Shown here piece after piece: positions 1,426-62,056 of a stretch of DNA of 64,000 bases. The notes under the pieces were generated by a model, which was given only the letters and a program-made list of their open reading frames with translations, was not told the origin of the DNA and did not search any database. Source of the stretch: Candidatus Nitrosocosmicus franklandus (GTDB lineage Archaea; Thermoproteota; Nitrososphaeria; Nitrososphaerales; Nitrososphaeraceae); the NCBI RefSeq assembly GCF_900696045.1, contig NZ_LR216287.1:2089854-2153853 (forward strand), written 5' to 3'. Within the stretch, counting starts at the first letter, position 1. Each line of letters begins with the position of its first letter. The position numbers and the translations under genes were made by a program.

Positions 1426-1514
1426 GGGTTCGTAGCTCAGCCAGGTAGAGCGTCTGGCTCTTAACCAGATCAAAAGAGGTTAAAATGTCGTGGGTCCGAA
1501 TCCCACCGAACCCG
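1426..1514 (+). tRNA. tRNA-Lys(CUU) with a probable 15-nt variable-region intron
   Basis: Acceptor GGGTTCG (1426-1432) pairs perfectly with CGAACCC (1507-1513). The D stem is GCTC/GAGC, the anticodon stem TCTGG/CCAGA with loop CTCTTAA (anticodon CTT at 1460-1462), and the T stem GTGGG/CCCAC. Between the anticodon stem and T stem there are 20 nt where 5 are expected. A bulge-helix-bulge can be drawn: AACC (1463-1466) pairs with GGTT (1478-1481), with 3-nt bulges at 1467-1469 and 1482-1484. Cutting after the second base of each bulge removes 1469-1483 and leaves CCAGA followed by ATGTC, a normal stem and 5-nt variable loop. CCA is not encoded. The 3' end and downstream CTACTA are echoed in repeats across the window. 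Confidence 0.93.
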
Positions 1515-1926
1515 CTACTATGTTGGTCTTTTTATTCCACCCATTATACTATAATAGCATAATAAATGACGGAATCCGTTTATGAATGGAAGAAAAATGA
1601 TCTTTTTAATAACACTATGACCTGCGAGTTCAATATATATATGAATGATTTAACCTTTATCCTTCACATCCCGAAAACATCCTTATTATCGAACAATATC
1701 AAATACAATAGTTTGAACAATTAATTAGACAATCAAATTGCTCATATCTTTTGAAGTAGGATACCGAGCAAAAACTAAATTTGGAGGACAATTCTAATTT
1801 GATGCATTGATTCTACAGATTTGCATTAATTCAACTATCTTGGGTTTAATTTTCAGATATAAAATCGTATTCGCAAAGAAAATATCTTTGAATATATTTC
1901 CTCTGATTTGCTCCTTACGGGCTTAG
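1515..1926. other. Intergenic, no gene seen
   Basis: AT-rich spacer between tRNA-Lys and the DUF1275 gene. I see no open frame or repeat apart from the CTACTA flank directly after the tRNA, which recurs in the dispersed repeats. Confidence 0.5.
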
Positions 1927-6416: not shown

Positions 6417-6972
6417 TTATGAAATGGATTATGATGGCAATATAAAATTTTTTACTTTAACCTAATTTGGAGAACATTTGTTTATTTTGACATAGAATTT
6501 TGATTGCTAGTCAGCTAATCATATTGAAAATATTATTCATGTAAGATGGTTTAATATTTACAGGTTCATCCATAGATTAATAATTATGACATTCACATCT
6601 ATTAATTTTGACAACCATTGAAATTAATTCACCTTTAATTTCAAAAAAAATTTCTAACTTGTTTTGGACTCGTTTGGATATCCTCAAGATTTCCACCTGT
6701 GAATATCATTGTTATGATAAAATTGAGTGACAAAAATGAGACAAATTTGTTTCACATACCACCGAACCCGCATAGTATACGGGTCTATATACTAGTTATT
6801 CTATATTATATTCGTCATAAAATAATGAATATTACCGATATTCGTGATAGCAGGAGGCTTTGTTAATGCCAGTAAAGTTAGAGACCTCTATAAAGAATAT
6901 TCAATTATTGGATAACCGTAATAATGCTCAATTAATTCATGAATTTTATTTATACTTGAGATCTGTTAATAC
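6417..6972. other. Intergenic: end of duplication A, then a tRNA-end-like repeat
   Basis: The first 290 bp match 44771-45055. A tRNA-end-like repeat follows at 6742-6795. No open frame is supported. Confidence 0.5.
6742..6795 (+). repeat. tRNA-Lys 3'-end-like repeat with palindrome, copy 2
   Basis: It reads CAAATTTGTTTCACATACC, then ACCGAACCCG, then a near-palindrome CCGCATAGTATACGGG. The leading AAATTTGTTTCACATACCACC is shared with copies at 37.2, 38.7 and 43.4 kb. Confidence 0.7.
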
Positions 6973-9259: not shown

Positions 9260-9606
9260 TAATAATTTAGCTATTCTTGGTAATAAACAATTATTACATT
9301 TTCTTTAAATAGGAATCTTTTTATCATTTGACTTTTTCTTCATTAAATCCATATGAATTTAATTAATGTGTTGCTCAATTCTAGGAGTAATTCAAAATTT
9401 ATGTAATATTCAGGATTCAAATCCGAGATAAGATTCTTAACCATTATTATGCAAGTTGTCCATCAACATTGCAAATATTACAACTTCAGATCTTTGGGTC
9501 AATTCTCTAACATAATTTGTGTAGATCTTACCCTGGATACGAGGAGTGTGATTTTATCGGTTAACTGAAAGTGGTTGGTATCTGGAAGTCAAATTTGTTC
9601 CACATA
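9036..9606. repeat. About 570-bp recent duplication, copy 1 (copy 2 at 41165-41735)
   Basis: A constant offset of 32129 holds from about 9040 to 9606, so there are no indels, and only a very few mismatches are seen (for example within CGGCTCTCC). Similarity stops abruptly at 9606, exactly where the tRNA-end-like repeat CCACCGAACCC starts in copy 1. Confidence 0.88.
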
Positions 9607-9800
9607 CCACCGAACCCTTATACCATACGGAACTTAATCTCACAGAATAACCGTTGAGTATAAAGGCAAGAAGGGTCTGGATACGATCGAACCCAAATAA
9701 CAAATTTATAGTAACATTATGAAGTAATCGCAGACTGTCTGGAGCAACAATTAAGTGGGTACATAAAATAGGTTGATACTTTTAAAAAAGCACCTAAAAT
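9260..9800. other. Intergenic with repeat copy 3
   Basis: No gene seen. The first 345 bp belong to the 570-bp duplication. Parts of 9440-9560 are also recognisable at 43260-43350. Confidence 0.45.
9590..9650 (+). repeat. tRNA-Lys 3'-end-like repeat with palindrome, copy 3
   Basis: It contains AAATTTGTTCCACATACC, ACCGAACCCTTATACCATAC and GGAACTTAATCTCACAG. This fits the long form of the repeat: acceptor-like end, TATAC-ATACGG, then a second AATCCCAC-like end. Confidence 0.7.
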
Positions 9801-17703: not shown

Positions 17704-18376
17704 GCAGTGTCATAGGATCCTCTGTTCAGTAGATGGGTATGACAGTTGTCAGTCATCCCTAAAGGAATAAACTCGCTAAACTTCGTTAAGTCTTTATTTT
17801 GGGTAGTAAAATATTTTCAGTTGAAATTGCGCCCGGAAGTTTTTCAGAGTACCTTTCTTCAAATATATCTCCATGTAACTACTCCTTCTATTCAGAAATA
17901 ACCACGACTTGAAAGGAGAATTGACAATATTACATTAAATTTTTTACCTTTTTTGATTAAATATTAAATATTGAATCATAGTTTGGTAGTTTATGAATTA
18001 AATTATTTTCAGTAGTTGAAATATCTAGTATGATTTGATATGTTAAAAGACAATTCGTAAAATGTACAAATTATCCGAACCCTTATACCATACGGAACTT
18101 AATCCCACAGCGTCCGTATGAGATTTAACTTTAACGCTATTCAATCGCTAAAGGTTAATTTATCCAACTCTAATTTGTTGGATGGTAAGTTTCAAAAATT
18201 CTCTTTTTAATATCTATATGGTTACATAATATGCCATAAGATTAGTTCATTATCTTTGTTACAACTATTTGGCATTGTAATATGACATCATAGCATAGTT
18301 ATAGAAGTATTCTTCGCTAGTGATTGTATATTTTGCTCAAAAGAGTAAGACTAAATTAGCAATCCGGAGAGAGGTT
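17704..18376. other. Intergenic with repeat copy 4
   Basis: No gene seen except the repeat at 18072-18110. Confidence 0.4.
18072..18110 (+). repeat. tRNA-Lys 3'-end-like repeat, copy 4
   Basis: It reads CCGAACCCTTATACCATACG then GAACTTAATCCCACAG, nearly identical to copy 3 at 9608-9642. The AAATTTGTTTCACATACC leader is missing here. Confidence 0.7.
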
Positions 18377-29671: not shown

Positions 29672-30157
29672 ATTATATACAGGTTAAGATGATATTTAAA
29701 CTACCGGGGTGTTTCGATATAGTGGAGATATACTTGATAATTTATAACCTCTGAGTTCAAAATAGTAGAGTTTATTAACATACATTCACTTGTCAGTGAC
29801 CAAAACTCAATATCATTCTTCATCATACTGTGGAAAGATAAGAGCAAAAATAGACATCAGTGAAATAATTAAATTTCTGCAGGTACTAACTGTATTGAAT
29901 TTCATGTTCATTCCACCGGACCCTTATACCGTACGGGAACTTAATCCGCACGCGCCCAGACTGTTACTAAGAAGCATTCCAAATTATCATATTTTAAGCA
30001 CAAATAAGCATACTTAGGTCAAAGAATTTACTGTTTGTAAAGTGTAATAGAACCCTATTAGTTTCGGATTCTGTAAGTTAATTCTAAAAGTGCTAGAATA
30101 TTAGAGTATTGCACCTAGTTAGCAAATGCCATATATTTTTTCTATGGTATCAAAGAT
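29672..30157. other. Intergenic with repeat copy 5
   Basis: No gene seen. The end includes ATATATTTTT near 30131, about 20-27 nt ahead of the next ATG, a likely TATA element. Confidence 0.4.
29911..29955 (+). repeat. tRNA-Lys 3'-end-like repeat, copy 5
   Basis: It reads TTCCACCGGACCCTTATACC, GTACGGGAACTTAATCCGCA. Same layout as copies 3 and 4, with CCCTTATACCGTACGGG able to fold back. Confidence 0.65.
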
Positions 30158-36893: not shown

Positions 36894-37304
36894 TGGTTAT
36901 AGTACAATCAGCTTGATATTATTTTTTTAAATAACATTTTAAGTCCGAGTTTTAGTTTTAGATTATCAATAAATTAGGATCTAATATCGTTCCAGTATTG
37001 AATGCAAATTCATAGATCTAAGACTGTATATCAGTCCCGCTAGGTAAATTATTAAAATTTGGGATTAGGGTACGCGTAAATCTCTACAATATTCATAGGT
37101 GAAACTCTATTTCAGTTTTAGCAACTATTTTATTGTTATTGAAAACAACTTTATGCGTGACAAAATTGAGTCAAATTTGTTTCACATACCACCGAACCCG
37201 TATACTATACGGAACTTAATCCCACCGAACCAGATACTAATAAAGAGTAGCAGTATTTCTTTTCCATTCACATGTTTAAATAGTACCTTACTTAGCAATT
37301 ACCA
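36894..37304. other. Intergenic with repeat copy 6
   Basis: No gene seen. Holds the most complete tRNA-end-like repeat (37170-37245). Confidence 0.45.
37170..37245 (+). repeat. tRNA-Lys 3'-end-like repeat, copy 6 (fullest form)
   Basis: Order: TCAAATTTGTTTCACATACC, ACCGAACCCG, perfect palindrome CCGTATACTATACGG, AACTTAATCCCACCGAACC, AGATACTAATA. The second half reproduces the tRNA T-stem, acceptor strand and flank a second time. Confidence 0.75.
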
Positions 37305-43120: not shown

Positions 43121-43576
43121 ATGGTTATGATGTAATGATGTTAATTTTACATCAAGTTCAATCATTTTTAAATTATAGAACTTTGTGCAGAAGATAATTG
43201 AATTTATTGCCTTTTATAAATTTGATTGTTGTATCTTTATATTTTTTATTTCGAGGTTTATTACAGCTTCAGATCTTTCGCTAAATCCTCTTCCATAATT
43301 TGTGTGAAGTATACCCAAGAGATGAAGAGTGTGATTATTATGGGTTAGATGAATTGGGTATGGATTGTGAGTCAAATTTGTTTCACATGCCGCCGAACCC
43401 GCTACTAATTATAGTAATGATATAAGACAATTAATCTTTTTTCCACGTACATGATTGATGGCGTTAATTATTTCGGGTAGTAATACAATATACCACCGAA
43501 CTGTCATAGATATGAAATAATAAACATGGATTTATGAAATACATTTCCTCTTTACTGGTTATCATATCTGTTTAGC
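43121..43576. other. Intergenic with repeat copy 8
   Basis: No gene. 43260-43350 resembles 9475-9560, and 43385-43576 is the left flank of duplication B. Confidence 0.45.
43372..43419 (+). repeat. tRNA-Lys 3'-end-like repeat, copy 8
   Basis: TCAAATTTGTTTCACATGCC, GCCGAACCCGCTACTAATTA, TAGTAATG. It retains the longest run in common with the tRNA gene (CCGAACCCGCTACTA). Confidence 0.75.
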
Positions 43577-44770: not shown

Positions 44771-45344
44771 TATTATGAAATGGATTATGATGGTAATATA
44801 AAATATTTTACTTTAACCCAATTTGGAAATATTTGTTTATTTTGACATAGAATTTTGATTGCTAGTCAGCTAATCATATTGAAAATATTATTCATGTAAG
44901 ATGGTTTAATATTTACAGGTTAATTCATAGATTAATAATTATGATATTCACGTCTATTAATTTTCGTGGCCCTTGGAATTAATTCACTTTTAATTTCAAA
45001 AAAAATTTCTAACTTGTTTTGGACTCATATGGATATCCTCATGATTTCCACCGAACCAGATACTAATAGTTGGTAACTATAGTATATAATAGTAAGAAAT
45101 AACTTACATGAAATTAAAGTTTTAATTTATATATTCGTCTGAATGTGGGCCTATCCAGTTAAAGGATATTTGCTTACTCGACCTGCTCTCTCTCTACTCC
45201 ACTTAATACTCATTGCATCTACTTCATCTTTTACAGATGTTCCTCATGCCGCAACACCACCGCCTAGACCAACTATCTTTCCAAGGATTATCTGTTTGAA
45301 ATAACACTCTATTCAAGTTATTATACCTATGAGGACGGTGGTCA
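44771..45344. other. Intergenic with repeat copy 9
   Basis: The first 285 bp are the right flank of duplication B. The rest has no supported gene. Confidence 0.4.
45045..45077 (+). repeat. tRNA-Lys 3'-end-like repeat, copy 9
   Basis: TTTCCACCGAACCAGATACT, AATAGTTGGTAAC. The CCACCGAACCAGATACTAATA string is the same as the second half of copy 6. It marks the right end of duplication B; copy A has TTTCCACCTGTG at the same place. Confidence 0.68.
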
Positions 45345-45688
45345 GAAATCTCTAAGGAAAGAAACATTTTTGATGTTGAGTGGATTCTGTTATGCGTTGT
45401 GAGATACTATGAGAAACATGTTGTATTCACCGATGGCGGTGGTACATAGTATCAACCACAAGACTGTGAATTTCTAAAAATGGAACATCACAGTCAATCT
45501 TTTTTTTGGCAAACAGGAAAAAAGATTGATTGAAAAAAAGGTACAATATATAAAAGGCAGAACGGAAGGTTTCGATGACTACTTCCACGTAAAATAAATA
45601 ACTGCAAACTAATGCACATAAAGAATTGGGTGAATCTATTAAGTATCAACATAACAGGGATATGATTAACGCTTAAGTTAACAGCACC
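45345..45688 (+). pseudogene. Old IS6-type transposase remnant
   Basis: Frames read in order give SKERNIFDVEWILLCVVRYY, EKHVVFTDGGGT, then EFLKMEHHSQS, IEKKVQYIKGRTEGFDDYF. They align with ITQERNMFVAERFLSGVVRD, GKHPVSTDGGTW and IERTIQYIKDRTEGFDDYF of the intact copy. Several stops and indels. The end TTAAGTTAACAGCACC (45673-45688) is a worn terminal repeat. Much more diverged than the 6973-7652 copy. Confidence 0.8.
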
Positions 45689-45740
45689 ATCAAATCTTCC
45701 GAATATTCAAATATGTCTAAATTCAACAATAGCTAAACTT

Positions 45741-47213
45741 ATGAAATTTGGTGGCAATCTAATACACTATCATTCCATGTATCTTTTTGTTGTTATGTTT
45801 GTGTTTTTGTTGACATTTACAATTATTGCTAGTCAAGTTGCTCATGGTAAGCAAGAGTCTTCATTTAATGGGATAAATTTCTCAAAGCATGTCGATGTAT
45901 ATAGTAATAAGGAAGGAATATTGGATACTTCCCTAATTGTTGAAGCGAAGCAAGGTACGATTGGAAACCAACCAATCACAGCGTTGGCGTACAACGGGTC
46001 ACTCATGGCACCAACGTTACACATTAAACCAGGAGAACGACTGGTGGTAAATCTTGTTAACAAGATAGATGAAACTAACATACATTATCATGGTTTCCAT
46101 GTGTCGCCGATGGGCAGCTCCGACAACGTCTTTCGTGTAGTTGAAACTGGACAAACCGCGAGGTACGTGCTAGATATACCTATCGATCATCCATCAGGAA
46201 CTTTTTGGTACCATCCACACATCCATGGTCTCGCTACAACTCAAGTAGGCAGCGGGATGTCAGGTCTGATCGAAATCGAAGGTTTGAAAGACTTGTTACC
46301 TACTTCCTTACACAATATCACTGAGCAAACTGTGGCTTTGAAGGCTTTTCCATGGAATCTAAACGGAACTTCAATGAATCCAATATATAAGTGGGCAGAT
46401 TACCTTACTGTTAATGGTCAGATTAATCCTATTATAGATATTTCATCAGGGGAGACTCAACTTTGGAAACTTGCAAATATTGATCCCGCTACGTATTACA
46501 ATATAACATTACCAGGTCACATCTTCGAGGTGATAGCAGAAGATGGTAACCCGGTCTGGGATGTTTGGAAAGCAAAAAGCCTCTTACTTCCTGCTGGCAA
46601 GAGATTTGATGTGTTGGTTACTGGAGGAGAGAATGGAACTTATCCTCTACTGTCACTCCCATATAACCGCTCTGGATTTTCTCCGACCTCAGAGGTAAAT
46701 CTGGCTACGGTAAATGTGCATGACAAAGAAGGTTCAGAGACGCCAGAAGTCGCTCCTTCGAGTTTAGCACTAAGACACGATCTTGAAGGTGCACAGATCA
46801 CGGCTAATCGTACACTAGTCTTTGATGGCTCACCAAACAACAATACTGTTAACCGATTTGGTGACGTGGGAACTAACCAGATAAACGGTAAAGTCTTTGA
46901 TCATAAACGAGTCGACTACACCGTCAAGCTAGGTGATGTAGAGGAGTGGACACTCAAAAATACCGATGACGAAGATCATACATTCCACATCCATATCAAT
47001 GACTTTCAGGTAATGTCAGTAAACGGTCAACCTTATAATGCACATAGTTTGCAGGACTTGGTAGTCATTCCACAAGGTGGTGAAGTTGTGATTCGTATTC
47101 CATTTACAGATTTTGTTGGAAAATTTTTCTTTCACTGCCACATTCTCCCACATGAAGACACTGGTATGATGGGCGTAATTGAGGTGGTCGACCCATTCAC
47201 ACCACAGGATTAA
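45741..47213 (+). CDS. Exported three-domain multicopper oxidase, copy 1
   Basis: 490 residues with a signal peptide (about 10-35). All four copper motifs of a laccase-type oxidase are present: NIHYHGFHVSP, TFWYHPHIHGLA, EDHTFHIHINDFQV, and FFHCHILPHEDTGMMG, with the type-1 Cys, two His and axial Met in the last. It should oxidise a substrate or metal outside the cell and reduce oxygen at the trinuclear centre. Substrate unknown. Such enzymes are abundant in ammonia-oxidising archaea. It starts about 50 bp after an old IS end, so its promoter lies close to or in IS-derived DNA. Confidence 0.9.
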   Translation: MKFGGNLIHYHSMYLFVVMFVFLLTFTIIASQVAHGKQESSFNGINFSKHVDVYSNKEGILDTSLIVEAKQGTIGNQPITALAYNGSLMAPTLHIKPGERLVVNLVNKIDETNIHYHGFHVSPMGSSDNVFRVVETGQTARYVLDIPIDHPSGTFWYHPHIHGLATTQVGSGMSGLIEIEGLKDLLPTSLHNITEQTVALKAFPWNLNGTSMNPIYKWADYLTVNGQINPIIDISSGETQLWKLANIDPATYYNITLPGHIFEVIAEDGNPVWDVWKAKSLLLPAGKRFDVLVTGGENGTYPLLSLPYNRSGFSPTSEVNLATVNVHDKEGSETPEVAPSSLALRHDLEGAQITANRTLVFDGSPNNNTVNRFGDVGTNQINGKVFDHKRVDYTVKLGDVEEWTLKNTDDEDHTFHIHINDFQVMSVNGQPYNAHSLQDLVVIPQGGEVVIRIPFTDFVGKFFFHCHILPHEDTGMMGVIEVVDPFTPQD

Positions 47214-47523
47214 TTGAGTGGTTCGAAATTATGTTAATGGTGTTTAACAAGAATCATTATTTTTGACTTTTACTTTTTTTCTTTTATCGTCGAAGAAATA
47301 TTATCTGAACTAACATGAATAATCTCTATGATCTGATAACAACTCTTTGTTAAATGATCTTTGATATTTTAGTTTACTGCTTTATGATTCTCTTATAGAG
47401 TTTGACTCACAAAATAAGCGAAATATGTTGTTACTCCATACTAATTAACCAAGGATCTGATGAGTTGAATATGAATTTCATTTAAACGAGCATACCACAT
47501 ACAATGTCTAAACAATTCTTATT
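47214..47523. other. Intergenic
   Basis: About 310 bp with a T-rich stretch (ACTTTTTTTCTTTTATCG) shortly after the oxidase stop, a likely terminator. No gene. Confidence 0.4.
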
Positions 47524-48492
47524 ATGATATTTGTGGATATGCTTTTGATGCTGTTCATATTGCATGAAATTCGATTCATCATAATTGCTTTGCTTTGTGG
47601 TGGATTCTTGACCTCTTTTATACCGTTTATTTTTGCTGAACCTTCCATTGTAGACCGTTCATTAAAGATCGAACTGATTGCAGAGGGGCTCTCATCACCA
47701 ACTAGTATGGCTTTTGTTGATTCTCAAAATATACTCGTGTTGGAAAAAAATAGTAGAGATGTAAGATTGGTCTCTAATGGTTACTTAAAAGAATAACCCG
47801 GTTTACAACTAGATGTTGATTCTACAACCTTGACCTGCTGTAGAGGATTGCTCGGCATTGCAGTTAATAACCTCGGTTATACCAGTGGTAATAAACAAGT
47901 CTTTCTCTACTTTGCTGCAGCAGCAGGTAAAGATGATAACCCGATCTTGAATAAAGTTAACAGGTATGATTGGGATGGCAAAAACCTTCTAAATCCTCTT
48001 AACATTTTGAATTTGCCTGCAATACCCGAACCAAATCATCCCGGAGGTAAACTAACACTGGATAAAAAAGAAGGTAAACTATATGCAGTGATCGGAGACC
48101 CTAACAACGTAGGCATACTCCAAAATACAAAAAATAATAATAACAACAATAATGATCTTACCGACAGCTCTGTTATCATAAGAATCAATTCAACGGATGG
48201 TTCGGCCCCACCAAATAACCCTTTCGCAAGCATCAAAGATGCTTTTCCTTCGAGTCAGGTTGAGAAATACTATGGATATGGGATAAGAAACAGCTTTGGA
48301 TTAGCAATAGACCCAGTGACCAATAACTTATGGGATACAGAAAAAGGGGATAAGGATTTTGATGAAATAAACCTAGTGCGAGCTGGTTTCAATAGCTGCT
48401 GGAAAAAATTAATGGGACTCATCTCACAAAGCGATATTTACTGGCAGACTAGTTACTCAAAATACACATCCAAACTGCCAAAGATGAATTAA
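47524..48492 (+). pseudogene. Sugar dehydrogenase with nonsense mutation and lost C-terminus
   Basis: The frame begins with a hydrophobic leader and SLKIELIAEGLSSPTSMAFV, and meets TAA at 47794-47796 where the intact paralogue (12742-14490) has Glu. It continues in frame with RGLLGIAVNN, NHPGGKLTLDKKEGK, GYGIRNSFGLAIDPVTNNLW, and DTEKGDKDFDEINLVRAGFN, then stops. The last third of the propeller and the cupredoxin are missing. A cupredoxin-like remnant is 3.5 kb away on the other strand. NHPGG replaces the catalytic HNGG, so activity may have been lost before the stop arose. Confidence 0.85.
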
Positions 48493-49275: not shown

Positions 49276-50814
49276 ATGTTCCACAAAATAGAATCTGTAA
49301 ATAACAGGGGTATGATTTTTACTTTTACCATCTTTTCTCTTTGTTTGATCGCGATGATTACAATCGCACCTCAAAGCTCCACCTTCACTTCTCCATGGAA
49401 TGCATTTTTGAATCCACAAATCGAAGCTTTTGCACAACCATTGATTAGGGATCAACCATCGTCTCTAGATGGTATGAACTATTCAAAACCTCAAGATGTA
49501 TATAGTAAAGATGGTGTTTTGAAAACTACTCTCACGGTAGACTATTTGATGGGTAAGCTCGACAACAAGTCAATTGTTTCTATGGCCTATAATGGTTCGA
49601 TTCCAGGACCTGCTTTTCATGTTTATCCTAGAGATAGAGTTGAAATTGATTTGATAAATAATCTTAATGAGTCCACCAATCTTCATTTTCATGGACTTCA
49701 CGTATCTCCTACGAATAATTCTGATGGAAGCGCATCGGATAATATATTCCTCAATGTTGAACCTGGTAAGACACAGAAATATGTCCTCAATATTCCAAAG
49801 GATCACCATCCCGGCTCGGATTGGTATCATTCACATTTTCATAAACTTTCTTATGGACAAGTCTCTGCAGGTCTGTCTGGCATGTTCATTATTGAAGGGT
49901 TAGAAAAGTTATTACCAGAATCCTTACAGAATATCACGACACATACCTTTGCCATGAGAGATATTCCATTCGACCAGGCATACATTACTACACAACACTT
50001 GCCACACAGCATAAGTAATACAAATACAGGCACTGAAAGAAATACTGTTAATGGAGAAATTAATCCAGTCATCAATATTACATCCGGAGAGACTCAGTTA
50101 TGGCGGTTCGCAAACATAGGTCCTGAGAATGAGCTTGCAGTTGAACTCCCTGGCAACACATTCTATGTCTTAGCTGAAGATGGAAGTCCAGTTTGGGAGG
50201 TATGGAAAAATGATTCTCTTTTCCTTCCTTCCGGAAAGCGGTTTGATGTACTCGTGACTGCGACAGGAAACGGATCTATTCCACTTAATAATACATTTGC
50301 TGAACCGTACGGTACATGGGACCATAATATTATTGCAACTGTAAATATACAAGGCAATCAAAAAGATACAGAGAATTCAACTATTATTCCAACGAGCTTA
50401 AGGGCCAAGGAAGACCTGAATCTTAAAAACATTACTAATAGTCGAGTTCTTAATTTTTCATCAAATGACATAGAATGGACATACAAGATAGATAACGTGA
50501 CGTTCGATCCAAACAGGATAGATCAAACAGTTAAGCTTGGAACTGTAGAGGAGTGGAGGTTAGTAAACCTTGACGGAGTAAATACAACAAATATTCATCC
50601 ATTTCATATCCATGTGAATGATTTTCAAGTAATTTCAGTAAATGGGGAGCCATATGAGGCTAGGGGATTACAAGATACAGTTATTATTCCAACGGGTGGT
50701 GAAGTGGTCATAAGGATACCATTTGATGATTTTGAAGGAAAAACTGTTTATCACTGCCATCTGATGTTTCATGGCGACTTTGGTATGATGGGTATTGTGG
50801 AAATGGTCAAATAG
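49276..50814 (+). CDS. Exported three-domain multicopper oxidase, copy 2
   Basis: 512 residues, signal peptide about 10-32. Copper motifs: NLHFHGLHVSP, DWYHSHFHKLSYG, IHPFHIHVNDFQVISVNG, and VYHCHLMFHGDFGMMGIVEM. All trinuclear His and the type-1 Cys/His/Met are present. Roughly half of the residues match the oxidase at 45741-47213, so they are paralogues that diverged some time ago. The next gene begins 10 bp downstream, forming an operon with a small exported protein. Confidence 0.9.
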   Translation: MFHKIESVNNRGMIFTFTIFSLCLIAMITIAPQSSTFTSPWNAFLNPQIEAFAQPLIRDQPSSLDGMNYSKPQDVYSKDGVLKTTLTVDYLMGKLDNKSIVSMAYNGSIPGPAFHVYPRDRVEIDLINNLNESTNLHFHGLHVSPTNNSDGSASDNIFLNVEPGKTQKYVLNIPKDHHPGSDWYHSHFHKLSYGQVSAGLSGMFIIEGLEKLLPESLQNITTHTFAMRDIPFDQAYITTQHLPHSISNTNTGTERNTVNGEINPVINITSGETQLWRFANIGPENELAVELPGNTFYVLAEDGSPVWEVWKNDSLFLPSGKRFDVLVTATGNGSIPLNNTFAEPYGTWDHNIIATVNIQGNQKDTENSTIIPTSLRAKEDLNLKNITNSRVLNFSSNDIEWTYKIDNVTFDPNRIDQTVKLGTVEEWRLVNLDGVNTTNIHPFHIHVNDFQVISVNGEPYEARGLQDTVIIPTGGEVVIRIPFDDFEGKTVYHCHLMFHGDFGMMGIVEMVK

Positions 50815-50824
50815 GTGATGGAAT

Positions 50825-51331
50825 GTGAAGATTAGCAATATCAATACAAATATTTCCAAAAAAATTTCAGCTGTGACTTTGTTTGCGATAATGACATTTA
50901 CCTTAGCTGGACTTTTAGAAATAACTTTGCTATCTGAGTCACCTGCGGTAGCACAAGAGCGAGAACGGGAGCGAAGTGACCCAATTACGGGATGTTTCAA
51001 GGAAGTTGGCGAAACGCAAGTAGCACCTAACGGTATTCAGAATTGGACTGAAAGCATACAGAACTTCGACTCCTTAATACCAACTTCTGATACACTGACA
51101 TTAATAAATAATATTGTAGTCGGAGATAGCGGCCCAGTAAATGATATGACGGGGATATGGTATGTTCTAATAAATGGAAACAGCACAGCTCATGACAGGC
51201 AGATGGTTTTGGACGAGGTTAATAGTCTTTTAGCCGCCTCCAAACCAGGGTTTACCAAAATACAACAGGACTCGCTAAGTAGATGCATAACTAACGAAAC
51301 CAACTCTTTAGGCCCTACGCCAAACTATTAG
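50825..51331 (+). CDS. Small exported protein in the multicopper oxidase operon
   Basis: 168 residues from a GTG 10 bp after the oxidase stop. A signal-type segment (about 13-35) is followed by a charged run ERERERSDPIT. The mature part has two Cys (DPITGCFKEVGE and LSRCITNE) that could pair, and a helical region HDRQMVLDEVNSLLAASKPG. Family unknown. Tight coupling to the oxidase suggests a partner, for example a copper donor or electron mediator, but no copper motif is visible. Confidence 0.65.
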   Translation: MKISNINTNISKKISAVTLFAIMTFTLAGLLEITLLSESPAVAQERERERSDPITGCFKEVGETQVAPNGIQNWTESIQNFDSLIPTSDTLTLINNIVVGDSGPVNDMTGIWYVLINGNSTAHDRQMVLDEVNSLLAASKPGFTKIQQDSLSRCITNETNSLGPTPNY

Positions 51332-51959
51332 GGCCCCACACCTCTTTAAGTAATGCAATTGCCTAACACTTACCAAAACAAATTACTATAAATGGGGAAA
51401 CTAGGGGAAAGGAAAATACTTCATTTGAAAAATATTTAGAGATTAGCTGCCCTATCTATAATCAATTCGTGATCCTAAATGTTTCAACAAAATAAAATTA
51501 AGTTAACTATTTCAACAATTTAATTCAAACAAATGAATAAAATTATAAAATAAATCACACACTCTGTTACCTTAGGTAGTTTTTTTCAATCTCTTTCCAA
51601 TATTTTTCTTATTTAAAGAACTCTTTTAAAATCCATTTGTGCCCAAGATCAGATACATTTTGCTAAATTTAGATCAGCTAAATCAAGAATTAGATATTTA
51701 TTCTCTTATAAATTGCTCAAGTTAATAGGACCTTGTTGATATGAGGGCATTTTATGTAAACCTGATACATTTGATTTAAAGTAGACAACCATTACTTAGT
51801 ATGCTCTAGCTCATATTTGGCTATCTTATGACGATTATTTATCAAAAGAACCGAACCCTTCCGTCATACGGAACTTTCCCACCTGATTTTAACTCAATAG
51901 TGAGTTCCGTTCAATATTTGAAAGAAAGAATAGTCAGATGTGATATGTGTCATCTGGAT
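51332..51959. other. Intergenic with repeat copy 10
   Basis: No gene seen. TTAGTTTTTTTCAATCTC-like T-rich tracts lie near 51575. Confidence 0.4.
51848..51885 (+). repeat. tRNA-Lys 3'-end-like repeat, copy 10
   Basis: AACCGAACCCTTCCGTCATA, CGGAACTTTCCCACCTG. Same order as copies 3 to 5 but more worn. Confidence 0.6.
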
Positions 51960-54219: not shown

Positions 54220-55364
54220 ATGAAATTAATGATGAAGTTACTCTTATGGAATTGGGAATTAACGACAAATACTATCTAATGGGATATTTTAGGATATTAT
54301 TAGCTTGAAAAAATATTATTTTCAAATCAACTGTAAAAGATGAATTAAAAAAAGAAACAAATTCAAATATCCTGGTTGGGTTAATTCCATCTTCATAAGA
54401 TCTTCACTTGTAACTTTAATTGAAGTTTTATTTTGGATAGTCTCTTGTCAAACTGCTAATAACAACCATTCAGAACAGCAATATTATAATCAGATTATAT
54501 TCAATTCAAAACAGTAAACAGAAACAACGTGATCTATTCTGAGATACAATCACAATCGCATCAAATTTTATTTACAATCTGGACTCCAGGATCATAGTAT
54601 AACAAGGTTTCAAAAACTTTAGTTACTAAATGGCGTAATTTGATCAATGAGATTCGTGCATGGTAGGAAAAGGGTTTAAATGTTATTTTGAATTAAAAAC
54701 TTTCAATTTTAATCTTTGTTCTGGAGGATATTTGGTTAGACATGGTAAGTATTGATTGAAACAATAATTTATCAAACTTAGCTAAACGTTACAATAAAAA
54801 GATTGTTACCGCGCTTTTTTCCTATAAGATATCAGAGAATTGTTGGACAAGAATGATCTCGACGGAATAGCGTGGTTGGAAATTCTAAAATCCATTTTAG
54901 CATCTTTGACTTTCACACAAGCAGTCAATAAAAGTTGGGGATATGCTTCAATAATCTAAATTTAATATTCCAGAAATAGATAAGCGAGTATATAATTTGG
55001 ATAATGACTTAAATTATATGCTTTCTTGTGAAAAGGAACGTTGTAAAGATTCTTTAAATTACTTTTGTTTCTTTTGTTTTTTTACCGTGTCTAACAAGTT
55101 CAATCAAAATAATAACTAATTGGATTTCTTTAAAACAGGAACCATTAGCTGGGATTATAGAGGTTGATACTTCGTTGCCACTTGCATATGTGTTAGACAA
55201 TAAGGATCAGTATTATTATTCCTCTTTCAAGAAGGATAAGGTAATGAACAATATCATATATGAAAGACGGAATAAATCACTTTAATTTTATTTTAGACCA
55301 AAGAATTGAGAACTTTTGAGGCAAAAAAGACAAAAAAAACAGAAGTAAGGTCAAGATCATGTGA
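54220..55364. other. Intergenic, about 1.1 kb
   Basis: No intact gene. A plus-strand stretch around 54837-54958 could encode ELLDKNDLDGIAWLEILKSI then LASLTFTQAVNKSWGYASII, perhaps a remnant. The rest is AT-rich. Confidence 0.4.
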
Positions 55365-56609
55365 TTAACGATCATTGACTGTTGAGGGTAAAGTTGGTGC
55401 CAGGTACGCAGCAAGTTCCTTGAAGATGTCGGTGGCGATGCTCGTGCCCTCTGTGGCGTTCGGGCCATGCGTATTGACGATCACGATCGAGAGCTGCTGC
55501 GACGGCAGGTATGCGGCGATCCCTTCGTATCCGTTGAAGACCGGGTTCTGCAACACCCACCCATTGCCGACGGCGACCCCAAGTCCATAGCCGATCTGCC
55601 CCGGCGCACCCGGCAGACCCTTAGACAGATCCTCGACCTGCTCGCTCGCTGACTCCTTCGAGAGCAGCTTGCCGGTGCCGATCGCCTTGATGAGCGTAGT
55701 CATGTCGCGCAGTGTCGAGGTCATGATGAGTCCGTCGCCGAGGCCCCACGACGGGCTCCATCCTGTCGACTCCTCGTAGACACCGCGCTCTGACGTGTAC
55801 GCGTGAAGTGCGGGTGAAGGGATGGCCGGGAGCTTCGTGATATTTGTTTCGGTGAGCCCGAGCGGACCGAGGAACTTTTGCTGCAAGAGCTCGGTGATCG
55901 ACTTTCCTGTGATCTTCTCAACAACGTTACCGAGGATGATAAAGTTGGTGTGCGCGTAGTGGAAACACGTGCCCGGGTCGCAGACGATCGGCTGCGCGAA
56001 CGCGTATTGCAGCAGCTCGTCGTCCGTCCAATGGCGGAACGGCTCTGCGAACTGCGCCGCCTGGAAGGGCGGGTTTTCTTGAATGTAGTCGGGGTAGCCG
56101 GAGGTGACACTCGAGAGCATCCGCAGTGTCACCTTGTCGGCGTTGGGGTAATGCGGGAACCACTTCGACAGGGTGTCATCGAGGCTGAGCTTGCCCTGCT
56201 CCTGCAGCTGCAGCACCAGAGTCGTGAGCATAGGGATCGCCATTGAGCCGGGACGGAACTTCATATCCGGGGTCGCCGGCACTCCCTCTTGGGAATCCCC
56301 GAGACCCGTATTGACGACAGTACTATTGCCGACGTCGACGCGCAGGAGCGCAGCCTTGGCATCCTCCTTCTGCATGACACCTTGCGTGATCGAGATGATC
56401 TGCTTCGACACCTCGGCCTTACTCGTACACGTACCGCCGATGTCGATCTGACTAGACAAGCACTTCGAGATGATTGTCGTTGTATTAGTACCTATAGTAG
56501 AATTCTCAAGTGTATTGTTTGTTGGAGTTATGTTCACAACTTGTCCCATTGCTGTAGTTGGAACGAGTATGAACGCTGCCAGCACTAAGCCTAAGCAAAA
56601 TGGTTTCAT
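55365..56609 (-). CDS. Exported serine-hydrolase-like protein, GC-rich acquired body with AT-rich signal region
   Basis: 414 residues. The first 50 (KPFCLGLVLAAFILVPTTAM, then an Asn/Thr-rich spacer TPTNNTLENSTIGTNTTT) are AT-rich and typical of this genome. From about residue 50 to the end the DNA is strikingly GC-rich: 56041-56100 has 38 of 60 G/C, while 55261-55320 just outside has 16 of 60. The fold is class C beta-lactamase-like (QLQEQGKLSLDDTLSKWFPH, FHYAHTNFIILGNVVEKITG, ELAAYLAP). Key residues are altered: the SxxK position reads SMAI and the YxN region reads YAH. It may therefore not be a classic serine hydrolase. It is preceded without a gap by 56610-56918. Confidence 0.85.
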   Translation of the reverse strand: MKPFCLGLVLAAFILVPTTAMGQVVNITPTNNTLENSTIGTNTTTIISKCLSSQIDIGGTCTSKAEVSKQIISITQGVMQKEDAKAALLRVDVGNSTVVNTGLGDSQEGVPATPDMKFRPGSMAIPMLTTLVLQLQEQGKLSLDDTLSKWFPHYPNADKVTLRMLSSVTSGYPDYIQENPPFQAAQFAEPFRHWTDDELLQYAFAQPIVCDPGTCFHYAHTNFIILGNVVEKITGKSITELLQQKFLGPLGLTETNITKLPAIPSPALHAYTSERGVYEESTGWSPSWGLGDGLIMTSTLRDMTTLIKAIGTGKLLSKESASEQVEDLSKGLPGAPGQIGYGLGVAVGNGWVLQNPVFNGYEGIAAYLPSQQLSIVIVNTHGPNATEGTSIATDIFKELAAYLAPTLPSTVNDR

Positions 56610-56918
56610 TTATGTATACTCCAGTTTAGTCACGAACATACCTGCGGCTTTCATTGAACCAACACTAGATCGATTCATTTCAAGTTCTTTAGGGATCCCA
56701 TCAATTGCAACAGATCGATCTGTGGTTTCAATGACCTTTCCGTTATTATCTTTTGTAGAAGAAGGATTACACACAAAATTACCTCCACCACCATCTCCTA
56801 TGGGGGTATGACCTTTTACAATAGCTGTCACATTTAATTTAAATAAGTCTTGAATTGTTTTTCCACTTATAGCGCCTAATTCACTTATCCTATCTACTGT
56901 TATTATGGACCCGAACAT
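56610..56918 (-). CDS. Short protein resembling the N-terminal cap of pectate-lyase-fold proteins
   Basis: 102 residues. The segment VKGHTPIGDGGGGNFVCNPS then STKDNNGKVIE follows the pattern GDGGGG-x-F-x-x-x-x-S-S-x-x-D-x-G-x-V-I that opens pectate lyase superfamily and phage tailspike proteins. The beta-helix that should follow is absent, so this is either a stand-alone cap or a truncated gene. Its stop directly abuts the ATG of the hydrolase at 56609, so the two are probably translated together. Composition is AT-rich like the host. Confidence 0.62.
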   Translation of the reverse strand: MFGSIITVDRISELGAISGKTIQDLFKLNVTAIVKGHTPIGDGGGGNFVCNPSSTKDNNGKVIETTDRSVAIDGIPKELEMNRSSVGSMKAAGMFVTKLEYT

Positions 56919-57629
56919 ATTTTCAAATATGTAGATTGATATTTAAATTCGGTGTTAATAGACAAAATCAAGAATTAACGGAAAATGACTATCAATAACG
57001 GGTCCAAACTGCTAAAACTAGTTAATTCATGGAGCAATTTCTACTCCGAGTTAATATCAAAATATCCATTCAAGAACTTATCCATGCTTGGAAGATTCGA
57101 AAGTCACTGATGAATATAAAGATGTTAACTGATACATAAGATAGAAAGATTTGTGAATCATTTATGGATATAGAAATACACCTATAATCCAAACTTCAGA
57201 AATGTCGTGTTTTATGAAGATATAAAATTTTTATAGAAATTAGGACATCTTTTCTTACACCCATCGAATTATTACGTATATTTTGTTTGTATGCATACTA
57301 ACTTGCATTAGGATTGGGCCATTTAAATAGTCAACTTTGTTATTAGTCCCATCTAACCTGTAACAGATCTGTAACGAATCTTTAAATAATCCACAGACGA
57401 TGACATCAGAGACGTATATTTCTAATTTTGATATGTCTGCCAATGAACAAAATTTTAATGATTATTGATTAGCGGATCTATCATCCTATGAAGACTTATC
57501 TCGAGATCTACCTATTACAATTCTAAGAAGGAATTATATCAAGATGAAAAGTTTCAATCATTGAAAATATTTGAATAGTTTTTTTAAGATACTTGACACA
57601 ATCTCTCATCTTGTATTAAAGTAGAAAAA
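56919..57629. other. Intergenic with one weak ORF
   Basis: A minus-strand frame at 57255-57443 (62 codons, ADISKLEIYVSDVIVCGLFK) is possible but unsupported. No repeat recognised. Confidence 0.3.
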
Positions 57630-58253: not shown

Positions 58254-58766
58254 TCATTGTCACACTATTTAAAATATATAATTTGGGTAGCCGCAGTTCA
58301 CCATGAAATTTCTGATTTACTTAGTCTATGGAGTCTTGTCAGATGAAATAGTAAGAGGATAAGTGGCAGGACTTTGTATATAATACACGTATGGTCAAAT
58401 CTACATCTTAACACACAACCTAAAGATACTCATGAGGCGTTTAAACTAGGAAACAAATTCAATTATTTTGTCGCATCAACAACATGTATTGATATTCTTC
58501 ATCTACTCAATAAGGGCGGTGCCTAAAACATGTTGAGATTACTACAGAGCGTGACCGACCCTCTACGCACAAACTAACACCATAACCCAAGTAGACATAA
58601 ACCAATATGAGGTAAAGAAGATGACAAGCAAGTATAAAAAAACAGATAATCACAATGCTAGACAGTAATACAGACGCGTGCTTCTGTGAAGATTTTGAAT
58701 ATGGGAAAAAGTATGTAAACACATCGTATAGGTAATGATTAAAGTAGTTGAGATAACATCATAATC
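58254..58766. other. Intergenic, no supported gene
   Basis: Contains a hydrophobic minus-strand frame (58507-58722) that I do not support. No repeat. Confidence 0.35.
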
Positions 58767-58847
58767 GTGAGCGACCGCGACCCCAACAAACAACTCGAAA
58801 AACTTGAATTACAATCTGGACAAATTACCATGATACTAGACAAATGA
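58767..58847 (+). CDS. Possible 26-residue protein coupled to the next gene
   Basis: GTG 58767; SDRDPNKQLEKLELQSGQIT then MILDK. Its stop TGA overlaps the ATG at 58844 (ATGA), a typical coupling arrangement. It is the main argument that this short frame is translated. Confidence 0.33.
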   Translation: MSDRDPNKQLEKLELQSGQITMILDK

Positions 58848-59143
58848 CCATAACCAAAGCCCAACAAATAGAGCTAACCAGAAAAATTTTTAAAATACTT
58901 GGGGGTGAGAAGAACGTATATAATTTACACTTTTACTGGAATAAGGGCGACGGGTTAGAATTCTACACTGGTAGTATATCAAAGGTTCAAAAGAAACAAA
59001 TCAAAAAATTGTTTGATAGGAATAGGTTCTACATATTGGTAGAGAATTCAAAACCTAACCTATTAGAAACATACTGTCCTAACAATGGTTTACACTTTTG
59101 GATATGCGAAAAGCCCACGTATAAAAATCCTCCAACATTATGA
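58844..59143 (+). CDS. Hypothetical soluble protein, 99 residues
   Basis: Mixed alpha/beta: TITKAQQIELTRKIFKILGG, VYNLHFYWNKGDGLEFYTGS, VQKKQIKKLFDRNRFYILVE, then GLHFWICEKP. The order resembles a small beta-alpha-beta domain. No family recognised. Confidence 0.55.
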   Translation: MTITKAQQIELTRKIFKILGGEKNVYNLHFYWNKGDGLEFYTGSISKVQKKQIKKLFDRNRFYILVENSKPNLLETYCPNNGLHFWICEKPTYKNPPTL

Positions 59144-59908
59144 GGCTCAACATACAAGCGCCCCATCTTTTAACACCACATTATATTATATTATGGACTC
59201 ACCATCTCTGTCTTTTATCTTTTCTAAGGAAAAAGAATCTGCGTAAATCAATTTCTAACCTAAATTGTGTGTATTTATCAACGAATAGTAATTTTGTTAT
59301 GCATTCCTTCTGTAGTAAAAACTAAATCCTATTTTACTTGATGTTATAATAAGTTCTTAATCGACTTAAACTTATATCTAGAGATTTTGGATTTATCTAA
59401 ATCATTATTGGTTTGAATAATATTAAAGAAATATTTTAATTTTGAATCTCGACCGAAACCATATACAATACGGAAATTAATACTACCGAACCTGCAAGGA
59501 TGTCTAATTCACATCCAAAATCTACGATTATTTTCATCAACTGTTTCCATTGATAGATAAATTTGACAAAATTTAATATTTAGCAAAATCAAAAATAAAG
59601 TTCTTAGTGTCCTTCTATTTTATTGTTGTGATAATTATTTTATATGAATTGGTTACAGCTTATCAGGGATGTCAATAGCATCCGTTAGTTTGATCAAATT
59701 TAGTAGAACAGAAGGTATGTCAAATAGAAACATTCGCAATTTGAATTATCTTATTTATTATAAAGTAAAAAAAGTGACTAATAGTATAACAACATTTTAT
59801 ATATTTGCATAAATTACTGTTTCTATCCCAAGTAATTTTTATTTTCAGGAATCTGATTTTGAAAGCTTTGATTCTAAATTATCTATCTTCTTTCTTATTT
59901 CTTTTATT
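59144..59908. other. Intergenic with repeat copy 11
   Basis: A 61-codon plus frame starting at 59140 is not supported. No other gene seen. Confidence 0.35.
59449..59502 (+). repeat. tRNA-Lys 3'-end-like repeat, copy 11
   Basis: GACCGAAACCATATACAATA, CGGAAATTAATACTACCGAA, CCTGCAAGG. Same order as the full form (copy 6) but degraded. Confidence 0.6.
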
Positions 59909-60649
59909 TCATCCAATATCTCTCTGAGTTATAGGTGTGACAGATATGTGACTTTCAATTTGTTTATAGGCTTCTTCAGATTTTCTTACTATTACTCCTA
60001 TGAATATATTGATGACTACAAAAGTACTTATTAAGATGAAACTAATGAAATAAATTCCATACAAATGATTAACATCGATAGCAATATACATTATATCTGT
60101 CCAATTCGCTAATGTTAATATTTCAAATAGTGTCAAAAAGGATCTAGGCAAAGAATCCCAATGCTTAGGGTCTATGTCATTAAACAGATGATAACCTGTT
60201 ATACCAAATATGAAAAAAACAAGTAATAAAAGTAGAAGAATATTTATCATACTTGGTATCGATTTTATTATTGTCATAACCACTGCAGACATTTCTTTTG
60301 ATGTACTTGTAAGTCGAGTAACCCTGAGAAGTCTTACCAATCTTGCAATCGTTGAATATCCTCCGCTGAAAGGAATTAATGATAATACTATTATGGAAAA
60401 ATCAAACAAATTCCATCCATCCTTAAAATACAAAGTAACATTCGGATAGGTAGAGAATATTTTTAATGAAGCTTCAACTATGAAAACAACTATAACGAAA
60501 ATATTGATTGATTCAAAGAGTACCTTATACGTATCTAACTCTTGAAATGTTTCTAATGCTAAACTAGCTGCCTGTAAGAGAATAACTATTGTAATAAAAT
60601 GATTAAACTTTGGATCATCTACTGTTTTCTTTATTTTACTGATAAACAT
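59909..60649 (-). CDS. Single-domain voltage-gated cation channel (NaChBac-like)
   Basis: 246 residues with six helices and a pore loop, the size of bacterial sodium channels, which assemble as tetramers. S1 about 17-35, S2 48-66, S3 80-94. S4 is at 101-113 with Arg every third residue (ARLVRLLRVTRL). S5 is 128-152, the pore helix 168-180 and S6 198-222 (FISFILISTFVVINIFIGVI). The selectivity filter is TLANWTD (179-185), where NaChBac has TLESW and calcium-selective variants TLDDW. The acidic filter residue is thus Ala, while the later Asp is kept. A short C-terminal tail follows. Stands alone. Confidence 0.88.
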   Translation of the reverse strand: MFISKIKKTVDDPKFNHFITIVILLQAASLALETFQELDTYKVLFESINIFVIVVFIVEASLKIFSTYPNVTLYFKDGWNLFDFSIIVLSLIPFSGGYSTIARLVRLLRVTRLTSTSKEMSAVVMTIIKSIPSMINILLLLLLVFFIFGITGYHLFNDIDPKHWDSLPRSFLTLFEILTLANWTDIMYIAIDVNHLYGIYFISFILISTFVVINIFIGVIVRKSEEAYKQIESHISVTPITQRDIG

Positions 60650-61106: not shown

Positions 61107-62056
61107 AGAGCCTATCCCAAAATTAACTTTCTATAGATGATTATACTACAAGAGAACTGTGCTAGACCAAGATAGTTTTCATCCTTCTTTTCATATCGTG
61201 TGAAGAGTTTCCTAAACCTGTTATGCCATGAATTCGTTCTCTCTACAACCCATCTCTTGGAAGAATATTTCTTACGGTTTGGCATTGATATTTCTTTGCC
61301 AATTTCACCTTTCTTCCCTTTTTTCTTCTTGATTGGAATGTGCAGAACATATCCTCGTTTGATTAATTCCTGTTCTTCCTCTGCAGATTTGTATCCCTTA
61401 TCAAGACACAGATGTTGTAATCGTCGTCGTCGTCGTCTCGATCTGGATAATGATTTTGGTCTTTTTATTACTGTATTATCGACTACATCTGTTACCAGAT
61501 TGATGTCGTGAGTGCTAGCAGGTGAAATTACAACCGATAGAGGAATACCTTTCTTCTCTGTCAAAATGTGTCTTTTTGTGCCTAGTTTGCTCCTGTCTGT
61601 GGGATTATTTCCAGTCTTGGCCCCCCTAAAGGTGACTTTATGGATATACTGTCTATGGATTGCCACGTCCAGTTGAGACCAATTTTATCTTCATAATCTT
61701 TCAATAGTTTGATCCATGCATTTTTAAATACATCCAGTTTATTCCACTCCTGAAATCTCCTGTGACAGGTAGAACCTGAACCATATTCTTTTGGAAGCAT
61801 CTTCCATTGGCACCCCGTTCTAAGAACGTAAAGGATCCCATCCAGTACTTGTTTATATGGAATAATCGGTCTACCCACAGTTTTTGGAGGCTTTTCTTTA
61901 GGCAGTATCTTCTTACACTCGTCCCATTATTCATCGGGAATCCTTCTGATAGTAGGAAGAGTGTGTTTTGCTTTGTCTTCCTTAGTCTGGACACAGATCA
62001 CGGTTTACCAAGACAGATAAGGGGCTATATTTCTATCGAATTTTGGGATAGGTTCT
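61107..62056 (-). mobile_element. IS5-type (IS427-like) insertion sequence, damaged
   Basis: Ends match as inverted repeats: AGAGCCTATCCCAAAATT at the left and AATTTTGGGATAGGTTCT at the right. The single transposase has an in-frame stop and a shift. Length about 950 bp. Flanking target duplication not established. Confidence 0.85.
61112..62001 (-). pseudogene. IS5-type DDE transposase with stop and frame change
   Basis: From GTG 62001, the frame has TLPTIRRIPDE, then TAA at 61927-61929 in place of a Gln-type codon, then WDECKKILPKEKPPKTVGRP and GILYVLRTGCQWKMLPKEYG. At the C6 run 61621-61626 (G6 on the coding strand) the frame must shift by one to read from SIKSPLGG to AKTGNNPTDRSKLGTKRHIL. 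Triad residues: Asp in QSIDS, Asp in LDKGY, Glu in RWVVERTNSWHNRFRKL. IS427-type elements can use programmed frameshifting, so the shift may be natural; the stop is not. Confidence 0.85.

What the first reader, a model, noticed from the sequence alone, without database searches (positions are those of the whole stretch)
55365..56609. Chimaeric gene: native signal peptide on a GC-rich acquired hydrolase body
The first 50 codons, with signal peptide and Asn/Thr-rich spacer, have the AT-rich composition of this genome. From about 56470 down to 55375 the DNA is about 60% G+C (38 of 60 bases in 56041-56100), then returns abruptly to AT-rich. This suggests a bacterial gene acquired recently and placed behind a resident export signal. 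Its catalytic motif SxxK reads SMAI, so function may have shifted.
Basis: partly seen in the sequence, partly recalled or inferred. Interest (0 to 1): 0.78.

Follow-up and report, generated by a model that had tools for sequence, protein, structure and literature searches.

The report
Bacterial pseudo-hydrolase in archaeal mobile cassette
A soil ammonia-oxidising archaeon carries a GC-rich gene taken from an actinobacterium, fused to an archaeal-looking secretion signal and apparently passed between archaeal species as a small cassette beside a tRNA gene; the protein is probably a secreted, catalytically dead relative of a peptidase.

Summary
A maximum-likelihood split places the GC-rich block at 55396-56469 (60% G+C against 31% around it). 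Its third-position GC is 0.78, against 0.30±0.04 in 279 genes of the same genome. It is not contamination: three single-contig and six draft genomes carry the gene. Phylogeny nests all archaeal copies in Actinomycetota (sister 71% identical). The body's synonymous divergence between species is 0.07-0.42, while rpoB is saturated for almost all pairs. So after one entry the gene spread laterally, and it is now drifting towards AT. The join is shared by seven genomes; another genus carries the same body behind a different leader. The SxxK loss is not an archaeal innovation: the whole bacterial clade lacks all three catalytic motifs (SxxK, YxN, HxG became [SA]xxI, YAH, QNP). Ser is Ala in four archaeal copies, yet dN/dS stays at 0.08-0.32. 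The protein is best read as a secreted pseudo-hydrolase. The unexpected part is the vehicle. The gene forms a ~2.1 kb unit between repeats copying the 3' end of tRNA-Lys(CTT). These form tRNA-anchored, co-oriented arrays (up to 33 sites), with an integrase beside the tRNA in two relatives. In five relatives a repeat abuts the bacterial segment's 3' edge.

The parts
55365..56609 (-). Chimaeric gene, 414 aa: signal peptide + Asn/Thr-rich linker + S12/beta-lactamase-fold body
   Evidence: ORF; PF00144 E=1.9e-49, residues 76-390
56544..56609 (-). Predicted Sec-type signal peptide, residues 1-22 (MKPFCLGLVLAAFILVPTTAMG), GC 0.455
   Evidence: read from sequence; composition; not run through a signal-peptide predictor
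56472..56543 (-). AT-rich Asn/Thr linker, residues 23-46, with four NxS/T sequons kept in every copy whose leader is fully readable
55396..56469 (-). GC-rich body of actinobacterial origin
   Evidence: ML segmentation; tree
56235..56246 (-). Former SxxK motif, S122-M-A-I125 (Ala at 122 in four other archaeal copies)
55950..55958 (-). Former YxN motif, Y218-A-H220
55542..55550 (-). Former HxG/KTG motif, Q354-N355-P356
55354..57352 (.). Conserved unit A (gene + upstream ORF + upstream non-coding), 88-94% nt identity in six other species, in different neighbourhoods
56610..56918 (-). 102-aa ORF ending directly before the gene; near-neutral dN/dS 0.4-0.9, probable decaying remnant
58760..59492 (.). 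Unit B (ORF 58844-59143), follows A in the window but precedes it in others
1426..1515 (+). tRNA-Lys(CTT), anchor of the array; its 3' end is the repeat core AATCCCACCGAACCCGCTAC
6667..6783 (+). att-like repeat (P1/P2/core)
9597..9647 (+). att-like repeat
18075..18110 (+). att-like repeat
29906..29947 (+). att-like repeat
37179..37237 (+). att-like repeat
43381..43435 (+). att-like repeat (core)
45022..45057 (+). att-like repeat (P1/core)
59449..59495 (+). att-like repeat at the end of unit B

Best explanation
The gene is an actinobacterial, secreted beta-lactamase-fold protein that had already lost its catalytic residues. It entered the Nitrosososphaeraceae once and was joined at codon ~47 to an archaeal-type signal peptide and sequon-rich linker. 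It now circulates between Nitrosocosmicus species as cargo of a tRNA-Lys(CTT)-anchored island. In that island ~2 kb units lie between co-oriented repeats of the tRNA 3' end. Proposed mechanism (inferred): a tyrosine recombinase recombines these att-like sites, excising units and inserting them at the array, so integrase-less units such as A are mobilised in trans. The 3' edge of the bacterial DNA is the recombination edge: in G005, G007, G009, G010 and G016 the att repeat abuts it, and where an intact 3' end was translated (G005, G007, G010) the last residues (PTSLP-stop) are read from the att repeat. In this genome the repeats flanking unit A and the integrase at the tRNA have been lost. At the surface the protein most likely binds a peptide, glycan or partner protein rather than hydrolysing anything. 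Shown: origin, single entry, shared join, lateral spread, purifying selection, motif loss, repeat arrays and orientation, tRNA-Lys anchor, integrase beside the anchor in two relatives. Inferred: recombinase activity on these repeats, N-glycosylation, binding function.
For: Tree of 39 rows: archaeal copies monophyletic (100/100), sister to an Acidimicrobiia copy (100/98), then Patulibacter (100/99), then Solirubrobacterales. That Acidimicrobiia genome holds further family members, one in tandem. Body dS 0.07-0.42 while rpoB dS is at least 1.05 or saturated for every pair except the sister species G008/G016 (0.16); the other genus G001 has dS 0.09 to G008 against rpoB 74% nt identity. Non-coding DNA of unit A is equally conserved. 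dN/dS 0.08-0.32 for the body. Private synonymous changes: 73 GC->AT against 6 AT->GC; the donor GC3 equilibrium (0.92) is rejected, p=1.7e-17. All three S12 motifs are replaced across the clade while canonical outgroups keep SxxK. Repeats: 0 hits in 360 kb of background against 33 (all +, bar two palindromic self-hits), 20 (-), 18 (-) and 13 (-) in four relatives' arrays, oriented like the adjacent tRNA-Lys in G000, G008, G007, G005. A 454-aa tyrosine recombinase directly follows the tRNA in G007, and an integrase hit does so in G005. Backbone synteny G000/G008 stops at the tRNA. The att repeat abuts the GC-rich edge, which matches the ML breakpoint at 55396.
Against: In the window itself the repeats flanking unit A and an integrase at the tRNA are missing, so mobility rests on relatives. 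Part of the repeat model was built from the same loci, and three repeats right of the window point the other way. No excised circle was or could be observed. Homologous recombination alone could shuffle the units. The AlphaFold2 model (pLDDT 69.5) is poor around the pocket, so a re-invented active site is not excluded. The G001 copy is on a MAG contig that ends inside the gene.
Confidence: 0.77

Rival explanations
1. Same origin and spread, but the protein is an active hydrolase with a rebuilt active site, using residues conserved in this clade (Y218, H220, C210/C215, Q354-N355, E279).
For: Those positions are invariant or nearly so across 15 members at 34-95% identity; purifying selection.
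Against: The nucleophile position is Ser or Ala even among close copies, Lys and the third motif are gone, and no family member with known activity was found that shares this residue set. Binding proteins also conserve pockets.
Confidence: 0.2
2. Ordinary cross-domain transfer followed by shuffling through homologous recombination between dispersed repeats; the tRNA-like repeats are passive and no recombinase acts on them now.
For: The window's array lacks an integrase at the tRNA and lost the repeats around unit A; repeats are long enough for recombination.
Against: Strict co-orientation with the tRNA, tRNA-derived core, and an integrase directly beside the tRNA in two relatives are the marks of site-specific integration.
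Confidence: 0.25
3. Contaminant or misassembled insert.
For: Sharp composition break.
Against: Independent assemblies of several species, three of them single-contig, carry the same join; AT-directed drift has begun in place.
Confidence: 0.01
4. Archaeal gene passed to bacteria.
For: Scattered presence in Acidimicrobiia: 3 of 395 genomes.
Against: Archaeal copies nest inside an actinobacterial family (16 of 399 Thermoleophilia genomes) and have non-native GC3 moving to native values.
Confidence: 0.02

Closest known systems
PF00144 / MEROPS S12 serine hydrolases (Streptomyces R61 DD-peptidase, D-aminopeptidases, class C beta-lactamases)
   Same: Profile match E=1.9e-49 and Foldseek probability 1.00 to R61 and D-stereospecific hydrolases
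   Different: SxxK, YxN and HxG/KTG are all replaced; NCBIfam enzyme models score far below their cut-offs
Unnamed actinobacterial subfamily with [SA]xxI / YAH / QNP (Solirubrobacterales, Patulibacter, some Acidimicrobiia)
   Same: 46-71% identity over the body; same altered motifs
   Different: Archaeal copies have a different leader, sequon-rich linker and an att-derived or foreign C-terminal tail
Dehalococcoides ssrA-specific genomic islands (PMC3146451)
   Same: Many same-site direct repeats of an RNA gene's 3' end within ~100 kb, tandem units, some without integrase, cargo with foreign codon bias
   Different: tmRNA instead of tRNA-Lys, bacterial, units with an integration module; here up to 33 sites with median spacing 1.6 kb, in archaea
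Thaumarchaeal integrated mobile elements (PMC6563490)
   Same: Tyrosine-recombinase integration at tRNA genes in the same phylum; tandem integrations occur
   Different: A term search of that paper found no mention of Nitrosocosmicus or tRNA-Lys; its classes include proviruses and casposons, not arrays of 2 kb units
Integrons, including archaeal ones (PMC9668308)
   Same: Array of small gene cassettes with co-oriented recombination sites; cross-domain cargo
   Different: No integron integrase above cut-off; sites derive from tRNA-Lys and were not tested against attC models

Membership tests
Active S12 serine hydrolase | beta-lactamase/PBP fold | tested here: met
   PF00144 169 bits; Foldseek to R61 probability 1.00, TM 0.58 by query and 0.69 by target
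Active S12 serine hydrolase | SxxK nucleophile and base | tested here: not met
   SMAI; Lys absent in all clade members, Ser->Ala in four archaeal copies
Active S12 serine hydrolase | YxN and HxG/KTG motifs | tested here: not met
   YAH and QNP in the archaeal copies and nearly all of the clade
Active S12 serine hydrolase | hydrolytic activity | not testable with these tools
   needs protein
tRNA-anchored tandem integrative island | array begins at a tRNA 3' end and repeats copy it | tested here: met
   tRNA-Lys window 1426-1515; core AATCCCACCGAACCCGCTAC
tRNA-anchored tandem integrative island | repeats co-oriented with the tRNA | tested here: met
   G008, G007, G005 without true exception; G000 10 of 13
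tRNA-anchored tandem integrative island | integrase gene beside the anchor | tested here: inconclusive
   present in G007 and G005; no hit in the window or beside its tRNA
tRNA-anchored tandem integrative island | excision and integration | not testable with these tools
   needs reads or bench work
Integron | IntI integrase | tested here: not met
   TIGR02249: no match over cut-off in six genomes
Integron | attC sites (R'/R'' boxes folding as a single strand) | not tested
   no attC model was run

The most novel reading that the evidence does not exclude
Nitrosocosmicus has an integron-like system that evolved independently of IntI: a dedicated tyrosine recombinase beside tRNA-Lys(CTT) collects and shuffles 1-3 kb gene cassettes bounded by tRNA-derived sites, forming arrays of up to 33 sites. 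It is a route by which genes of bacterial origin spread among ammonia-oxidising archaea, and the chimaeric pseudo-hydrolase is one cassette.
Probability: 0.35. Interest if true: 0.85.

Novelty: new variant of a known kind. Interest (0 to 1): 0.64.

Why it matters
It catches a bacteria-to-archaea transfer in mid-amelioration, with both breakpoints resolved and a candidate vehicle identified. How such genes enter and spread in ammonia-oxidising archaea is largely unexplained. The tRNA-Lys arrays make it testable: the sites, a recombinase and a marked cargo are all named. The gene is also a clean example of a catalytically dead enzyme fold that keeps being selected and exchanged.

Tried and rejected
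Contamination or misassembly: rejected (same gene and join in independent assemblies). Private recent transfer: rejected. Second copy of the leader in the genome: none by DNA. Viral vector: no relative in viral contigs; plasmid matches at most 42% identical. Integron integrase: none over cut-off. Upstream 102-aa ORF as a functional partner: near-neutral dN/dS and a stop in G010 make it unlikely; the G005 and G016 pairs of that test are out of register by one codon and were ignored. No conserved gene neighbourhood around bacterial relatives (by eye). The raw 84:6 count of AT-directed changes overstates the bias because most sites are G/C, so it was replaced by the per-site test. AlphaFold model too weak around the pocket to map residues. 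An early codon comparison used two copies on the wrong strand and was redone.

Full report
OBSERVATION. The ORF at 55365-56609 (-) is real and the composition break is extreme. Maximum-likelihood segmentation puts the GC-rich block at 55396-56469, 60.2% against 31.1% G+C. Codons 47-414 have GC3 0.777; 279 genes of the same genome average 0.30±0.04, and no other gene in that sample exceeds 0.41. Codons 1-46 (signal peptide, Asn/Thr linker) have GC3 0.33. The genome is a single 2.84 Mb contig.

RELATIVES. Full-length copies with the same leader occur in other Nitrosocosmicus genomes (G005, G007, G008, G010), with frameshifted or gapped copies in G016 and G009 and a 3'-part copy in G015. G001, assigned to another genus of the family, carries the same body (92% identical) behind a different leader, MNKRQSFNIIAILAFTI..., with GC-rich DNA starting about 25 codons before the conserved Cys. 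The leader plus upstream DNA was found in no genome of the family without the body. Bacterial relatives are an Acidimicrobiia MAG (71%), Patulibacter (56%) and Solirubrobacterales (46-51%). Class surveys found strong matches in 3 of 395 Acidimicrobiia and 16 of 399 Thermoleophilia genomes. The tree nests the archaeal copies inside this group, with strong support for the nearest nodes.

TIMING AND SPREAD. Synonymous divergence of the body is 0.07-0.42 between species whose rpoB synonymous sites are saturated or nearly so; the sister species G008 and G016 agree (0.15 body, 0.16 rpoB). Hence one entry, then lateral spread within the family. Synonymous changes private to one copy are 73 GC->AT and 6 AT->GC; per site this implies an equilibrium GC3 near 0.46 and rejects the donor value of 0.92 (p=1.7e-17). 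The window copy is the most ameliorated (0.776; G001 0.919; bacterial L008 0.928).

PROTEIN. The profile match is PF00144 and the predicted fold resembles R61 DD-peptidase and D-aminopeptidases. All three catalytic motifs are replaced in the bacterial-archaeal clade, while outgroups and two of the archaeon's own paralogues keep SxxK. S122 is Ala in G005, G007, G009, G010 and in the bacterial sister, yet dN/dS between archaeal copies is 0.08-0.32. A selected, non-catalytic role is the simplest reading. Four NxS/T sequons in the linker are kept in every copy whose leader is fully readable, and the body carries 3-6, against none in the two closest bacterial relatives. This suggests, but does not show, archaeal N-glycosylation; AT drift alone raises Asn, so the body count is weak evidence.

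VEHICLE. The gene sits in a ~2 kb block (55354-57352) conserved at 88-94% across species but with different neighbours and a changing position relative to a second block. In relatives these blocks are delimited by ~100 bp composite repeats. Their core, AATCCCACCGAACCCGCTAC, is the 3' end of tRNA-Lys(CTT), located at window 1426-1515. Chromosomal colinearity between this genome and G008 runs up to that tRNA and stops there. Repeat clusters: G008 33 forward (two reverse calls are palindromic self-hits), G006 20 reverse, G005 18 reverse, G007 13 reverse, G000 10 forward and 3 reverse beyond the window; none in 360 kb of background. Orientation equals that of the tRNA in G000, G005, G007 and G008. 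In G007 a 454-aa tyrosine recombinase directly follows the tRNA; G005 shows an integrase hit at the same place. In G005, G007, G009, G010 and G016 the repeat abuts the 3' end of the bacterial segment; where an intact 3' end was translated (G005, G007, G010) it supplies the last residues, PTSLP-stop. This is the same position as the composition breakpoint in the window, where the repeat has been lost and a different tail (TLPSTVNDR) is present.

COMPARISON. As a protein this has the S12 fold but fails the defining catalytic motifs, so it is not filed as an active S12 enzyme. As a vehicle it works like the Dehalococcoides ssrA islands (PMC3146451) and fits the known habit of thaumarchaeal elements to use tRNA genes (PMC6563490; PMC8371274). 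It resembles an integron in layout but lacks IntI (archaeal integrons: PMC9668308). Genomic islands flanked by integrases have been mentioned in Nitrosocosmicus epidermidis (PMC13245735), without such arrays in the passages read. The literature search was limited to open-licence papers.

LIMITS. Mobility is inferred from anatomy. The origin of the leader is unknown. G001 is a 75% complete MAG whose contig ends inside the gene. The pocket could not be modelled well.

Noticed in passing
window 1426-64000; G008:C1:1344257-1442678; G006:C14; G005:C28; G007:C1:2408001-2476500: Co-oriented arrays of tRNA-Lys(CTT) 3'-end repeats, up to 33 sites with median spacing 1.6 kb, bounding shuffled gene blocks; an integrase sits next to the tRNA in G005 and G007. 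Probably a more important discovery than the gene itself.
   Followed up: partly
G000:C1:2156889-2173438 (right of the window): Three repeats point opposite to those in the window, suggesting an inversion or a second array end.
   Followed up: no
window 56610-56918: 102-aa ORF with a GDGGGGNF motif reminiscent of tailspike or beta-helix N-termini (from memory; weak PHROG match E=6e-4), evolving near-neutrally.
   Followed up: partly
window 44987-48437 and 49277-51810: Blocks 93-96% and 85% identical to G005 (rpoB 79%), the second holding a multicopper oxidase: further candidates for recent exchange.
   Followed up: no
G007:C1:1796611-1808584 (L153, L179): A second cluster of three same-strand repeats with an integrase-like gene beside it, away from the main array.
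   Followed up: no
window 61112-61878: DDE transposase (PF01609) split over two frames; related copy at 76% in G015.
   Followed up: no
window 59909-60649: Voltage-gated-type ion channel (PF00520, E=3e-49) in the array.
   Followed up: no
window 43692-44544: 144-bp tandem repeats within a secreted-protein-like region.
   Followed up: no
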